Source of the DNA: an uncultured Methylococcaceae bacterium
GTDB lineage: Bacteria > Pseudomonadota > Gammaproteobacteria > Methylococcales > Methylomonadaceae
Length of the DNA stretch: 36,377 nucleotides
Direction: 5' to 3'
Assembly (NCBI GenBank): GCA_903873165.1
Contig: CAIQNQ010000254.1
Location: 1-36,377 of the forward strand
Position numbers and translations under genes: made by a program. Positions within the stretch are counted from its first letter, which is position 1, and every line of letters starts with the position of its first letter. Of this stretch, positions 1 through 36,377 are shown in pieces. The notes below the pieces were generated by a model. The model was not told where the DNA came from. It ran no database searches and was given only the letters and a program-made list of their open reading frames with translations.

Positions 1-141
1 AAAAGCCATGTTTAATCTCCTAATATATCAGCCACCGTAGGGCGACTTCTTTTTTTTACAATAGCATTTTCTGTGTTTTCTTCAACAGTTTTTATTGATT
101 CTAATGCTGCGAGTCTTTTTTCCAGCGATGCAATAGTTGCG
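1..141. repeat. Left copy of exact 141-bp terminal repeat
   Basis: These bases are identical to the last 141 bases of the window. The repeat covers the start codon of the 117-aa virion gene and the 3' part of the 199-aa gene. Joining the ends makes both genes continuous, so the molecule is circular or circularly permuted. A length of 141 equals a common largest k-mer of short-read assemblers, so the repeat is more likely an assembly overlap than a biological terminal repeat; that explanation is inference. Confidence 0.95.
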
Positions 142-13778: not shown

Positions 13779-14855
13779 ATGCCTCTTTATCCATTAAGAG
13801 ATTATCAGCAGGAAGCACACCGGGCGGTTATGAACTGGATAAAATACCGCCCCGGTCAAAATGCTTATGTAAAAGCTCCGGGCGGTGCAGGTAAATCGGT
13901 TTTAATCGCTGCATGTGCCGAGGCATGCTATGCACTTGGTGAAAGAGTGGCAATTCTTACCCGAAGTGAGAAATTGCTAACCCAAAACTTTGCACAGCTC
14001 GCTCCCGAATATCAACAATTTGCAGGAATCTATTGTGCAGGAATCGGGCGTTATGAATTAGACAAACCAATATTATTTGCATCGATTCAGTCAATTACAA
14101 ATAAAGGCAAAAACTTAAAGATAAATCGGGTTTTAATTGATGAAATTCAAAATCTTCACCCCGACGAAGAGAGTGACACTCAATACTGGAATTTTATTAG
14201 AGATTTAGGCAATCCACCGATTCAGGGTTGGACGGCAACCGACTTTAGAACAGGCAGCGGCAGCTTAAAGTTCGGTCGTAAAATCTATGATATTCCGATA
14301 AAGCCGCTTATTGATAAGGGTTTTTTAATTCCACCGATCAATAAGGCTGTTCATGATATTGACCTAAGCGATGTAACTATTGTGCGTGGCAAATATGACG
14401 ATAAACAATTAGAGGAAATTTATCTTGATGATAAATTACTAGATAAATCAATATCGATTTTAAAGCAATATACTAAATTGCGGCATAGCGTAGTTATATT
14501 TGCACAATCTCGTAAACATGGCAAAATATTGCAGCAGGCAATGGCAGATAATGGTATGCACGCTGCTTTTGTTGACGGTGACATGGATAAGGAAAAAGAA
14601 CTTAACCCTATTTTAGAAGATTTTCAAAATAGAAAAACTAAGTTTCTTATCAATGTTGCTTTACTTGTCGAGGGGTGGGACTGCCCTGCGGTTGATTGTG
14701 TGGCAGTTTTTACCAGCACAATGAGCAAAGGTAAATTTGAGCAAATGCTGTACAGAAGCACTCGTTTATACAATCCATTGGAAAAAAAATACAAAGAATA
14801 TATTGACAAAAGGCAAGAAAAGTCTTTAATCTTGAACAAACCCAATATTACATAA
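13779..14855 (+). CDS. SF2 helicase, N-terminal part (gene interrupted)
   Basis: The 358-aa product begins with a Q-like motif (PLRDYQQEAHRAV), then Walker A APGGAGKS (about 33-40), DEIQ motif II (121-124), motif III-like WTATDFR, and a second RecA domain with VEGWDCP and motif VI region QMLYRSTRLYN (about 322-332). Related helicases then continue into a DLGGNF segment and a zinc ribbon; here the frame instead runs into unrelated sequence (KKYKEYIDKRQEKS...) and stops. The missing continuation is present in the gene at 15463, beyond an HNH endonuclease gene. It is either a spliced exon or a truncated half. Confidence 0.8.
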   Translation: MPLYPLRDYQQEAHRAVMNWIKYRPGQNAYVKAPGGAGKSVLIAACAEACYALGERVAILTRSEKLLTQNFAQLAPEYQQFAGIYCAGIGRYELDKPILFASIQSITNKGKNLKINRVLIDEIQNLHPDEESDTQYWNFIRDLGNPPIQGWTATDFRTGSGSLKFGRKIYDIPIKPLIDKGFLIPPINKAVHDIDLSDVTIVRGKYDDKQLEEIYLDDKLLDKSISILKQYTKLRHSVVIFAQSRKHGKILQQAMADNGMHAAFVDGDMDKEKELNPILEDFQNRKTKFLINVALLVEGWDCPAVDCVAVFTSTMSKGKFEQMLYRSTRLYNPLEKKYKEYIDKRQEKSLILNKPNIT

Positions 14856-14867
14856 TTAAGGGGAAAT

Positions 14868-15470
14868 ATGTTCAGAGAAGTAATGAGATGGAAAAGCGAT
14901 GATATGCCGGAAAGCACCCCGGCTATTGTTGTTGTTTCAAGTGAAGGAATTGTTAAGAGACTAGAATACAAAAGATGGAATTGTAAAAATTTATCCTATT
15001 CAACAATAAAAGAAAAAATATATAAACTTACAAAAAACAGAGGGACAAACACAAATAGAAAGAAGTCTGATAACTGGTATTTGTCAGTAAAAATTGGTAG
15101 AAAATCTTACTCTATTCATAGATTGGTTGCTATGGCTTGGCTTCCAAATCCTTATAATAAAAAAGAAGTTAATCATATAAATGGCATAAAATATGATAAC
15201 AGGGTGGAAAATTTAGAATGGGCAACTCGCAATGAGAATATGCACCATGCAAAAATTAGTGGACTATATAATCGGGAAATAAAAATAAAAAATTCACAAG
15301 TTGAAGAAATGAAAAAAATGAGACTGGACGGAATGAAATTAAAAAACATTGGATTCTTTTTCGGAGTGACGGGAGAATGTGTTAGACATAGAACAAGCAA
15401 AACAATGACTTCTGATGAAATAAATTTATGCCGTCAATCTAATAATAGGTGGAAAAATAATCATGTTTAA
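14868..15470 (+). CDS. HNH homing endonuclease
   Basis: This 200-aa protein has a NUMOD4-like N-terminus (PAIVVVSSEGIVKRL) and an HNH_3 core: SIHRLVAMAWLPNPYNKKEV (about 82-101), then NHINGIKYDNRVENLEWATR and NENMHH (to about 127). His 84, His 103 and Asn 111 are the expected metal and catalytic positions. The C-terminal 60 residues look like a small helical DNA-binding domain (KMRLDGMKLKNIGFFFGVTG). It starts 12 bases after the helicase stop with AAGGGG upstream. It sits inside a split helicase gene, so it is probably a mobile element, free-standing or carried by an intron. Confidence 0.9.
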   Translation: MFREVMRWKSDDMPESTPAIVVVSSEGIVKRLEYKRWNCKNLSYSTIKEKIYKLTKNRGTNTNRKKSDNWYLSVKIGRKSYSIHRLVAMAWLPNPYNKKEVNHINGIKYDNRVENLEWATRNENMHHAKISGLYNREIKIKNSQVEEMKKMRLDGMKLKNIGFFFGVTGECVRHRTSKTMTSDEINLCRQSNNRWKNNHV

Positions 15471-16209
15471 TGTGGTTTTCGTTGCAAAGCATTCTTTTGA
15501 AAAGCCACTTATTTTTCATCAGTTGTCACAAATTCACTCAAATAGTGATAAGATTATAGTTATAGATAATACAGAATTTTTAGAAAAATATTATAACGAA
15601 GAGTATATTATAATAAAAGATGTTGAAGCAAACAAAACCGATTTTCTTGTTTTGGATTTAGGCGGTAATTTTGAAAGTCACGGTGCTTTAGGGTCGCCTT
15701 ATACCGAGCCAAGCAAAAAAGAGATAAAACAGAAAAAAGGTAAAATATGCCCGTCATGTGAAGAGTATGTAATGCCACCCTCGCTTATGGAATGCCCCGA
15801 TTGTGGATATATTTTTACACCTGCCGAGGCAAGACAAATCAGCCACGAATCAAACCCTGATTTCGATAGTGATGCCATTTATGACGGCGATAGTGATATT
15901 GAAAAGTTTCGAGTAATTGAGACACAATATAAAATACATCGATCATTAAAAGGAAGTATGAGTTTAAAAGTTGAATATTTAATCTCCGGGCATAAATATC
16001 CGATTAGTGAATGGTTAAGCCCATACGGCAGCAGATCAGCTTATGTAAAACAATGGTTTTTAGAGCGTGGTCATGATATTTACGGGGATATTAACCAATA
16101 TAGCCTTGACGATTTGTTATTTTTTACCAATAAATTAATTAGTCCGACCCACATTCAGGCAAAACGTAACGGAAAATATTATAACATAACAGGGTATTAT
16201 TTTGAATAA
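15463..16209 (+). CDS. SF2 helicase C-terminal part with zinc ribbon
   Basis: The first about 56 residues are unrecognised. From residue 57 the sequence NKTDFLVLDLGGNFESHGAL matches the segment that normally follows motif VI in phage SF2 helicases. A zinc ribbon with Cys 96, 99, 111 and 114 (CPSCE and CPDCG) follows, then a folded C-terminal domain (VEYLISGHKYPISEWLSPYG). The ATG overlaps the HNH stop and has AGGTGG upstream, so it can be translated separately. If an intron is removed, residues before about 57 would not exist. It overlaps the VRR-NUC gene by 8 bases. Confidence 0.75.
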   Translation: MFNVVFVAKHSFEKPLIFHQLSQIHSNSDKIIVIDNTEFLEKYYNEEYIIIKDVEANKTDFLVLDLGGNFESHGALGSPYTEPSKKEIKQKKGKICPSCEEYVMPPSLMECPDCGYIFTPAEARQISHESNPDFDSDAIYDGDSDIEKFRVIETQYKIHRSLKGSMSLKVEYLISGHKYPISEWLSPYGSRSAYVKQWFLERGHDIYGDINQYSLDDLLFFTNKLISPTHIQAKRNGKYYNITGYYFE

Positions 16210-16593: not shown

Positions 16594-16691
16594 GGGGCTT
16601 CCCGTATAAGCAGAAAACCCCTCCCTTGCAGACAAACCGTGCCGATCATAAAGACCCCGTCAAGCCTCTTTATATGCTCAAACCGACGGGG
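16594..16691. terminator. Structured convergence region between two operons
   Basis: Plus-strand genes end at 16564 and minus-strand genes at 16709. Between them, GGGG (16594-16597) can pair with CCCC (16618-16621), enclosing GCTT/AAGC. CCCCGTC (16655-16661) pairs with GACGGGG (16685-16691). No long T-run follows either stem, so termination may be weak or Rho-dependent. The rest of 16565-16708 shows no gene. Confidence 0.45.
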
Positions 16692-17859: not shown

Positions 17860-17927
17860 TTTATACATTAAACAATCTATAAATCAAGTAAAATAATTAT
17901 TGACTTATACAATAATATCTATAAATT
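17860..17927. promoter_or_regulatory. Divergent promoters with shared core motif
   Basis: Minus strand: TTGATT (17882-17887), 16 bases, TATAAA (17860-17865), well placed for the operon starting at 17828. Plus strand: TTGACT (17900-17905), 16 bases, TAAATT (17922-17927), a weaker -10, for the 17973 operon. Between the -35 boxes is ATCAAGTAAAATAAT (17883-17897). Bases 17879-17906 match 20552-20579 exactly over 28 positions. The two -35 boxes are 12 bases apart, so one regulator bound there could control both directions. Confidence 0.6.
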
Positions 17928-20532: not shown

Positions 20533-20600
20533 ATAATACACAGATTATTTCATAAATCAAGTAAAATAATTATTGACTTGTTTATAGGTTTTGTTAGAGT
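20533..20600. promoter_or_regulatory. Divergent promoters of Cro-like gene and right plus-strand operon
   Basis: Minus strand: TTGATT (20555-20560), 16 bases, TATTAT (20533-20538). Plus strand: TTGACT (20573-20578), 16 bases, TAGAGT (20595-20600). The core ATCAAGTAAAATAAT is at 20556-20570. The layout repeats the 17.88 kb region with the same 12-base gap between -35 boxes. The leader ATTAACAACAAC before the plus gene (from about 20607) also occurs before the 7957 gene. Confidence 0.6.
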
Positions 20601-35891: not shown

Positions 35892-36245
35892 TTACTTGGT
35901 AGCCCAAGCGGTACTATTTCTTTTGGTAAAGATAGTCAAAGTATTAACAGCAATCGAAAAGCTGGTTGCACCGTTATTTACCGTATCAGTCCCGGGAGGA
36001 TACCATAAAATAGCATTACCGGTGTTACCGTTATAAACCCACTGTGAATCACCCGGATTTCCCGCCATACCTACAACGCCGGTTGAAGCGGCGGCAGTAG
36101 TTACTTCAGTTCCGATAGTAGTTACAACATAAGCGGTAGCTTGAGTCGTACCCAAAGCTGTTGCACCTTGAGTGACATCGCCGATAATATTGTTAGCAGC
36201 TTGGGCGGCAATCCCCGAGCCTAAAAGTCTTTGAGCAAAAGCCAT
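35892..36245 (-). CDS. Small beta-rich virion protein, 117 aa
   Basis: The product starts MAFAQRLLGSGIAAQAANNI and has a Thr/Ala/Val-rich beta region, with a GDSQWVYNGNTGNAILWYPP segment and strand-rich end (SFSIAVNTLTIFTKRNSTAW). AGGAG precedes the ATG. It lies between the 199-aa protein and the adaptor, so a minor virion role is likely. Its start codon is duplicated in the left terminal repeat at position 9. Confidence 0.7.
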   Translation of the reverse strand: MAFAQRLLGSGIAAQAANNIIGDVTQGATALGTTQATAYVVTTIGTEVTTAAASTGVVGMAGNPGDSQWVYNGNTGNAILWYPPGTDTVNNGATSFSIAVNTLTIFTKRNSTAWATK

Positions 36246-36377
36246 GTTTAATCTCCTAATATATCAGCCACCGTAGGGCGACTTCTTTTTTTTACAATAG
36301 CATTTTCTGTGTTTTCTTCAACAGTTTTTATTGATTCTAATGCTGCGAGTCTTTTTTCCAGCGATGCAATAGTTGCG
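36237..36377. repeat. Right copy of exact 141-bp terminal repeat
   Basis: These bases are identical to bases 1-141. The copy carries a second, 5'-truncated piece of the 199-aa gene (36248-36377, minus strand). One copy should be removed when the genome is circularised. Confidence 0.95.

What the first reader, a model, noticed from the sequence alone, without database searches (positions are those of the whole stretch)
13779..16209. SF2 helicase interrupted just after motif VI by an HNH endonuclease gene
The 13779 gene carries helicase motifs up to QMLYRSTRLYN and then leaves the expected sequence. The expected continuation (DFLVLDLGGNF, then a CPSC/CPDC zinc ribbon) resumes at residue 57 of the 15463 gene. 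Between about 14780 and 15630 lies an HNH_3 endonuclease gene. The about 850-base insertion has a size usual for a group I intron with a homing ORF and sits in a conserved site. A joint near 14780/15630 would give a natural-looking TRLYNP-NKTDFLVLDL. Alternatively the gene is split and the halves work in trans, since the second half has its own AGGTGG and ATG.
Basis: partly seen in the sequence, partly recalled or inferred. Interest (0 to 1): 0.85.

Follow-up and report, generated by a model that had tools for sequence, protein, structure and literature searches.

The report
Phage RadD-like gene split by endonuclease
In what looks like a complete phage genome, a selfish DNA-cutting gene sits inside a DNA-repair-type helicase gene and cuts it into two separately started halves; no splicing intron could be recognised, so it is most likely another "gene in pieces", of a kind already known from a few other phage enzymes.

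Summary
The interruption is real. The 13779 ORF matches RadD-like SF2 helicases through motif VI. The 15463 ORF carries the rest from residue about 57: the strand after motif VI, a zinc ribbon and a C-terminal domain. In 174 of 174 related loci examined both parts lie in one ORF. With the usual seven-residue loop the insert is about 856 bp. It holds an HNH_3 endonuclease gene at 14868-15470.

The intron reading is not supported. Rfam finds no intron in 14600-15800 at E<=10. At a similar setting it finds T4 td and Pf-WMP3 clearly and AR9 weakly. A P7-core descriptor scores 0-2 mismatches in 4 of 4 known introns, 5 here, as shuffles do. The insert's last ~160 bases look coding, in frame with the second half, with a start codon and an ordinary ribosome site.

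Best reading: a free-standing homing endonuclease split the gene. The halves are translated separately, with a ~28-aa tail and ~56-aa head from the insert, and probably assemble in trans, as for Aeh1 NrdA. Assembly is inferred. New member of a known kind.

The parts
13779..14855 (+). First half of a RadD-like SF2 helicase: two RecA-like domains through motif VI, lacking the strand that follows motif VI
14769..14852 (+). C-terminal tail of the first half (28 codons as counted here), GC 0.26; no Pfam match; modelled as a low-confidence helix (residues 333-352)
14860..14863 (+). GGGG ribosome-binding-like site of the HNH gene (duplex -7.1 kcal/mol; 4.0% of 494 ATGs are as strong)
14868..15470 (+). 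HNH_3 homing-type endonuclease gene (phrog_59 / phrog_959), open
15447..15452 (+). AGGTGG ribosome-binding-like site of the second half (-5.8 kcal/mol; median of 16 minus-strand gene starts -5.5; 10.7% of 494 ATGs are as strong)
15463..15624 (+). Head of the second half (54 codons), GC 0.24, coding-like in frame, no convincing homologue in the searches made
15463..16209 (+). Second half: strand after motif VI (from about residue 57), zinc ribbon, RadD-like C-terminal domain
15748..15804 (+). Zinc ribbon cysteines C96, C99, C111, C114, aligned with RadD ZF2
14766..15642 (+). Outer limits of the insert; about 856 bp if the ancestral loop had 7 residues
   Evidence: arithmetic on these

Best explanation
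A free-standing HNH homing endonuclease gene, not an intron, has inserted into the loop after motif VI of a phage RadD-like helicase gene. The gene is now read as two cistrons around the endonuclease gene. The first half ends in a tail of about 28 aa encoded by the insert. The second half starts at an ATG with its own ribosome site inside the insert and begins with a head of about 56 aa encoded by the insert. The split falls just before the strand that follows motif VI in RecA-like domain 2, so the second half must lend that strand back to the first half if the enzyme still works. The most likely state is two polypeptides that assemble in trans, while the endonuclease spreads the insert to uninterrupted alleles. 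Shown by computation: interruption, an open HNH gene, no recognisable intron, a coding-like head with start and ribosome site. Inferred: homing, assembly, activity.
For: Uninterrupted gene in 174 of 174 loci. No intron in 14600-15800 at E<=10, against controls T4 td 1.6e-8, Pf-WMP3 1.5e-5 and AR9 0.07 and 0.6. P7 descriptor 0-2 mismatches in 4 of 4 known introns, 5 here, reached by 146 of 200 shuffles. Flanks of the HNH ORF fold no better than shuffles, z -0.24 and 0.00. Head scores 0.294 per codon in its frame, against 0.316 and 0.304 for the two helicase parts and 0.215 for the HNH gene (all three in the training set); the head's other five frames give -0.10 to 0.05; chance of being open 0.0034. 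GC falls to 0.24-0.31 in the insert from 0.37-0.39. Walker A GKS, motif II DE, motif III TAT, motif VI Q and both Arg, and the four zinc Cys are kept. Precedents: Aeh1 nrdA/mobE, T4 gene 60 with mobA, phage 25 gene 43 (PMC2988022, passages).
Against: Residues fixed in all 63 sequences compared differ here: motif II H to Q (124) and motif VI G to Y (325); G327, fixed in 62 of 63, is S. The motif VI Gly is also present in 172 of 172 loci matched. This could mean decay or altered activity. The second half departs from 11 of 33 conserved columns, as much as only one of 59 others, which has 12. Rfam's group I model is weak on phage introns: at E<=0.01 in 15 kb it missed td and AR9, and at E<=10 AR9 gave only weak fragments. 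The ribosome site of the second half is ordinary, and the first half's own start shows none at all (0.0), so this measure decides little. The tail is only weakly coding-like: 0.275 in frame but 0.245 and 0.185 in the other two forward frames, chance of being open 0.076. No RNA or protein data; no close relative covering the site was found, so selection on the halves could not be measured.
Confidence: 0.7

Rival explanations
1. A self-splicing group I (or group II) intron with an HNH ORF, removed from the RNA to give one helicase.
For: Size and position suit it. HNH proteins of phrog_59 are common in Bastillevirinae introns (12 coding sequences in the part of Table 2 that I saw), whose non-coding part is 350 +/- 108 bases (PMC11878797, passages); here about 250.
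Against: (two sub-threshold RF00028 matches elsewhere in the genome, none in the window), with controls. The coding-like head would have no reason to stay open inside an intron.
Confidence: 0.08
2. The insertion destroyed the helicase. The halves are remnants and the phage does without the protein, or the first half alone keeps some ATPase role.
For: Unusual motif II and motif VI residues, the latter next to the insert. The first half lacks the strand after motif VI, and its tail is not modelled as a replacement strand. Conserved columns of the second half are also often changed (11 of 33).
Against: All three ORFs are open over 2.4 kb; catalytic and zinc-binding residues are kept on both sides; the head looks like selected coding sequence. 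Divergence of the first half, 28 of 81 conserved columns, exceeds all 55 profile-scan homologues (at most 11), but eight relatives not chosen by conserved patterns differ at 5-33.
Confidence: 0.2
3. An intein or another in-frame inserted domain.
For: Inteins may occur in this family: relative L004 shows an intein-like stretch at motif II (signature recalled).
Against: The frame of the first half stops at 14853-14855; no Pfam family matches head or tail; the end of the head has no Asn followed by Cys, Ser or Thr (sequence; intein rule recalled).
Confidence: 0.01

Closest known systems
Aeromonas phage Aeh1 nrdA split by the HNH gene mobE (PMC2988022, passages; the original papers are recalled, not read)
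   Same: HNH homing endonuclease gene splits a conserved phage enzyme gene into two coding regions; described as a fully functional enzyme made of two polypeptides
   Different: Host gene is a ribonucleotide reductase, not a RadD-like helicase; here assembly is untested
T4 topoisomerase gene 60 (mobA) and phage 25 gene 43 (seg) (PMC2988022, passages)
   Same: Enzyme gene in pieces next to a homing endonuclease gene
   Different: Other host genes; in phage 25 the order of events is unclear; the T4 seg genes are listed there as GIY-YIG
Group I introns with HNH ORFs (I-HmuI type, Pf-WMP3, AR9 RNA polymerase, Bastillevirinae)
   Same: Same broad HNH family, similar insert size
   Different: They carry a group I core; none found here
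ShiLan insertion in a phage methylase (PMC11855218, abstract and outline)
   Same: HNH insertion into a coding gene with no recognisable splicing element
   Different: ShiLan reads through in the host frame; here the host frame stops and restarts
E. coli RadD (PDB 6jde, 7r7j)
   Same: Both halves match RadD best in the PDB, by sequence or profile and by structure search (the second half weakly, TM 0.35)
   Different: RadD is one chain with two zinc fingers (PMC9049331, passages); here two chains, and only a ribbon like ZF2 is seen

Membership tests
RadD-like SF2 helicase | RecA-like domains with motifs I, II, III, VI | tested here: met
   GKS, DE, TAT, Q..xR..R kept; RadD 4e-30; motif II His and motif VI Gly replaced; NCBIfam RadD 163.5 bits, below the full-length cut-off of 720
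RadD-like SF2 helicase | zinc ribbon and C-terminal domain after domain 2 | tested here: met
   in the second ORF; one ribbon rather than two fingers
RadD-like SF2 helicase | single polypeptide | tested here: not met
   two ORFs; 174 of 174 relatives have one
HNH homing endonuclease | HNH_3 domain above cut-off in an open gene | tested here: met
HNH homing endonuclease | cuts the uninterrupted allele and spreads | not testable with these tools
   needs biochemistry or crosses
Group I intron | conserved core (P3-P9; P7 R and S segments) | tested here: not met
   with controls 43, 51, 92
Group I intron | spliced RNA | not testable with these tools
   no RNA data
Group II intron | domain V or D1-D4 match | tested here: not met
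   no such family at E<=10; no positive group II control was run
Gene split by a free-standing homing endonuclease | contiguous gene in relatives, endonuclease gene between two independently startable halves, no splicing element | tested here: met
   starts inferred from sequence only
Gene split by a free-standing homing endonuclease | halves assemble into an active enzyme | not testable with these tools
   no complex prediction or assay available

The most novel reading that the evidence does not exclude
The mobile insert carries its own repair kit at protein level. The ~28-aa helical tail and the ~56-aa beta-alpha head it adds to the two halves would be docking modules that let a gene it splits keep working, so that a homing endonuclease survives in an important gene without a splicing element.
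Probability: 0.22. Interest if true: 0.65.

Novelty: new member of a known kind. Interest (0 to 1): 0.42.

Why it matters
Few enzyme genes are described as split by intron-less homing endonucleases (three in the review I saw passages of). A RadD-like helicase divided inside RecA-like domain 2, with the strand after motif VI on the other polypeptide, would be a demanding test of how split enzymes reassemble. The coding-like head and the tail, with no convincing homologue in the searches made, make the idea of element-derived docking modules testable. It also warns that an HNH gene inside a phage gene is not by itself evidence of an intron.

Tried and rejected
Group I/II intron: rejected for with controls. 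The first td control (L185) turned out to be cut short at its 3' end and gave no RF00028 match; the longer td stretch (L188) gave 40.3 bits. The AR9 stretch (L186) was also clipped at the 3' edge of its match and gave only two weak fragments. In a 15-kb search at E<=0.01 only T4 nrdB was found and td and AR9 were missed, so Rfam alone would not have been enough.

The idea that the tail of the first half imitates the missing strand was tested by a model for which the homologues had been cut at motif VI. The tail came out as a low-confidence helix, not a strand, so the idea was dropped. The head is modelled beta-alpha-beta-alpha-beta at pLDDT about 44-55, too low to use.

Origin of the head: no match in phages beyond chance (61 records, best E 1), plasmids (2 records, E 7), PDB (4 matches, best E 0.77) or Pfam (none). 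Of 296 genomes, 77 (the window's own included) had something at E<=1, the best outside the window 0.005 and broken by stops, many over residues 16-49 in ORFs of about 600 aa. The two plasmid hits over the same residues are annotated as ABC transporters; I take all this as chance, but a remote link is not excluded. A duplication of the helicase was not supported (E 1.1).

A close relative with the empty site: two contigs about 83-86% identical to the window (L200, L201) stop short of the helicase. Single-protein scans with either half, the HNH or the primase gave no relative. A scan with the neighbouring AAA protein gave 15 loci, 8 of which reach past the site, all unbroken there; several of the 8 are near-identical.

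Full report
What is there. The window is the whole of contig C254, 36,377 bases, of a 3.46-Mb assembly. Its first and last 141 bases are identical, so it looks like a complete circular phage genome of about 36.2 kb, with terminase, portal, major head protein and primase genes. At 13779-16209 three ORFs run on the + strand: 358, 200 and 248 aa.

The helicase. The first ORF matches RadD by NCBIfam (6e-48; 163.5 bits, below the family's full-length cut-off of 720), by PDB sequence (6jde, 4e-30) and by structure search of its model (pLDDT 88, best match RadD 7e-23). The second half's best structural matches are also RadD chains, but weakly (E 6e-06, TM 0.35 on the query; its model has mean pLDDT 73.5). 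Its profile matches RadD residues 344-387 and 430-569 (whole-sequence E 4e-07, each stretch weak alone). RadD is described as two RecA-like domains, zinc fingers and a C-terminal domain, with Arg343 of motif VI at the ATP site (PMC9049331, passages). That Arg aligns with R329, the last motif-VI Arg of the first half. The residues after motif VI, with the strand that the alignments place next (KTDFLVLD here, GKTDCLILD in RadD), are at the start of the conserved part of the second ORF, residues 57-65.

The interruption. Both halves map to neighbouring parts of one gene in two Roseobacter phages and a Synechococcus phage and to one ORF in 12 of 12 relative-genome loci (in L013 the two alignments overlap). 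Of 180 loci then held, six were left out beforehand (two of the window itself, two HNH loci, two sub-threshold intron loci); in all 174 others both halves lie in one ORF. These loci were chosen for the first or the second half and some are near-duplicates. A further scan with the neighbouring AAA gene gave 15 loci, 8 of which cover the site, none interrupted there; one of the 8, L280, has a frame break elsewhere in the helicase. The loop after motif VI is 7 residues in 160 of 170 loci measured, which sets the insert at about 856 bp.

Is it an intron? Rfam gives nothing for introns in the window at gathering scores or in 14600-15800 at E<=10. Because Rfam's model can miss introns that carry long ORFs, I ran controls. 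In 15 kb at E<=0.01 it found T4 nrdB only and missed td and AR9. In stretches of about 1.2 kb at E<=10 it found Pf-WMP3 (1.5e-5), AR9 as two weak fragments (0.07 and 0.6; its stretch was clipped at the 3' edge) and T4 td (1.6e-8); a td stretch that I had cut too short was missed. A second test looked for the paired R and S segments of P7 (consensus recalled): total mismatches were 1 in td, 2 in nrdB, 1 in Pf-WMP3 and 0 in AR9, and 5 in the window insert, a score that 146 of 200 shuffles reach. The non-HNH parts of the insert fold no better than shuffles. A new kind of self-splicing RNA is not excluded, but nothing points to it.

Is the second half started on its own? The 162 bases from 15463 are open (chance 0.0034 in mononucleotide shuffles) and score 0.294 bits per codon in that frame. 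The conserved parts of the two helicase halves score 0.316 and 0.304 and the HNH gene 0.215. The head's other five frames lie between -0.10 and 0.05. The score was trained on nine stretches of this phage, among them those three, but not on the head or tail. AGGTGG at 15447-15452 gives -5.8 kcal/mol with the anti-Shine-Dalgarno end, near the median of 16 minus-strand gene starts (-5.5); 10.7% of all 494 ATGs do as well, and the first half's own start shows no site at all. The GC content of tail, HNH gene and head is 0.26, 0.31 and 0.24, against 0.39 and 0.37 in the flanks, so head and tail look like part of the inserted DNA. The tail alone is unclear (0.275 in frame, 0.245 and 0.185 in the other forward frames; chance of being open 0.076).

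Does it still work? Residues for ATP binding and hydrolysis and all four zinc Cys are kept. Against this, motif II reads DEIQ where all 63 sequences compared have His at the fourth place, and motif VI has Y where all 63 have Gly. Divergence is high: 28 of 81 conserved columns of the first half, against at most 11 in the 55 homologues of the alignment, and 11 of 33 in the second half, against at most 12 in 59. Eight relatives not chosen by conserved patterns differ at 5-33 of the 81. I give about 0.6 to a working two-piece protein.

Comparison. PMC2988022 (passages) describes Aeh1 nrdA/mobE, T4 gene 60/mobA and phage 25 gene 43 as genes split in connection with endonuclease insertions, the first fully functional as two polypeptides. 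PMC10448857 (passages) says that a split working gene is known in at least one instance, and reports HEG-interrupted genes of phage ICP1 that are spliced. PMC4246154 and PMC10580990 (passages) report split phage terminase and polymerase genes and propose or consider introns. My paper searches (listings) showed no title or abstract start on a RadD-like helicase split in this way. The library holds open-licence papers only, so this is no proof of absence. I therefore call it a new member of a known kind.

Noticed in passing
window 16656-16691 (+): A lone abiF antitoxin-type RNA (RF03085, 40.8 bits, gathering 37) with no Abi_2 gene found in the phage. It is the only RF03085 match in the assembly, while contig C113:3180-3821 of the same assembly encodes an Abi_2/AbiF protein (E 2.9e-56) with no such RNA found beside it. 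PMC12373285 (passages) reports an abiF-motif RNA that neutralises AbiF by direct binding in cis and in trans, so a phage-borne orphan copy could be an anti-defence decoy. That both contigs share one cell rests on binning.
   Followed up: partly
window 1-141 and 36237-36377: Identical 141-base ends of a contig that is exactly the window: probably a complete circular phage genome, held in a bacterial assembly.
   Followed up: partly
L200 and L201 (IMG/VR 3300004805_000207, 3300025476_000014): Close relatives of this phage, portal protein 94% identical and longest DNA matches 83-86%, in two other data sets; neither contig reaches the helicase.
   Followed up: partly
L017, L018, L027, L031, L035, L041, L051, L064: A different HNH gene sits directly upstream of the uninterrupted helicase gene in 8 of 174 loci, overlapping it in the annotated L017 and L018; this neighbourhood may attract endonuclease genes.
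   Followed up: partly
L004 (1483-3555, - strand): An intein-like sequence (signature recalled) interrupts motif II, after the DE, of a relative's RadD-like helicase.
   Followed up: no
window 17879-17906 and 20552-20579: An exact 28-base repeat ending in TTGACTT upstream of small genes; possibly a repeated phage promoter.
   Followed up: no
window 14139-14150 and 14742-14765: Motif II is DEIQ and motif VI is QMLYRSTR; the His (motif II) and Gly (motif VI) replaced here are fixed in all 63 relatives compared. Cause unknown.
   Followed up: partly
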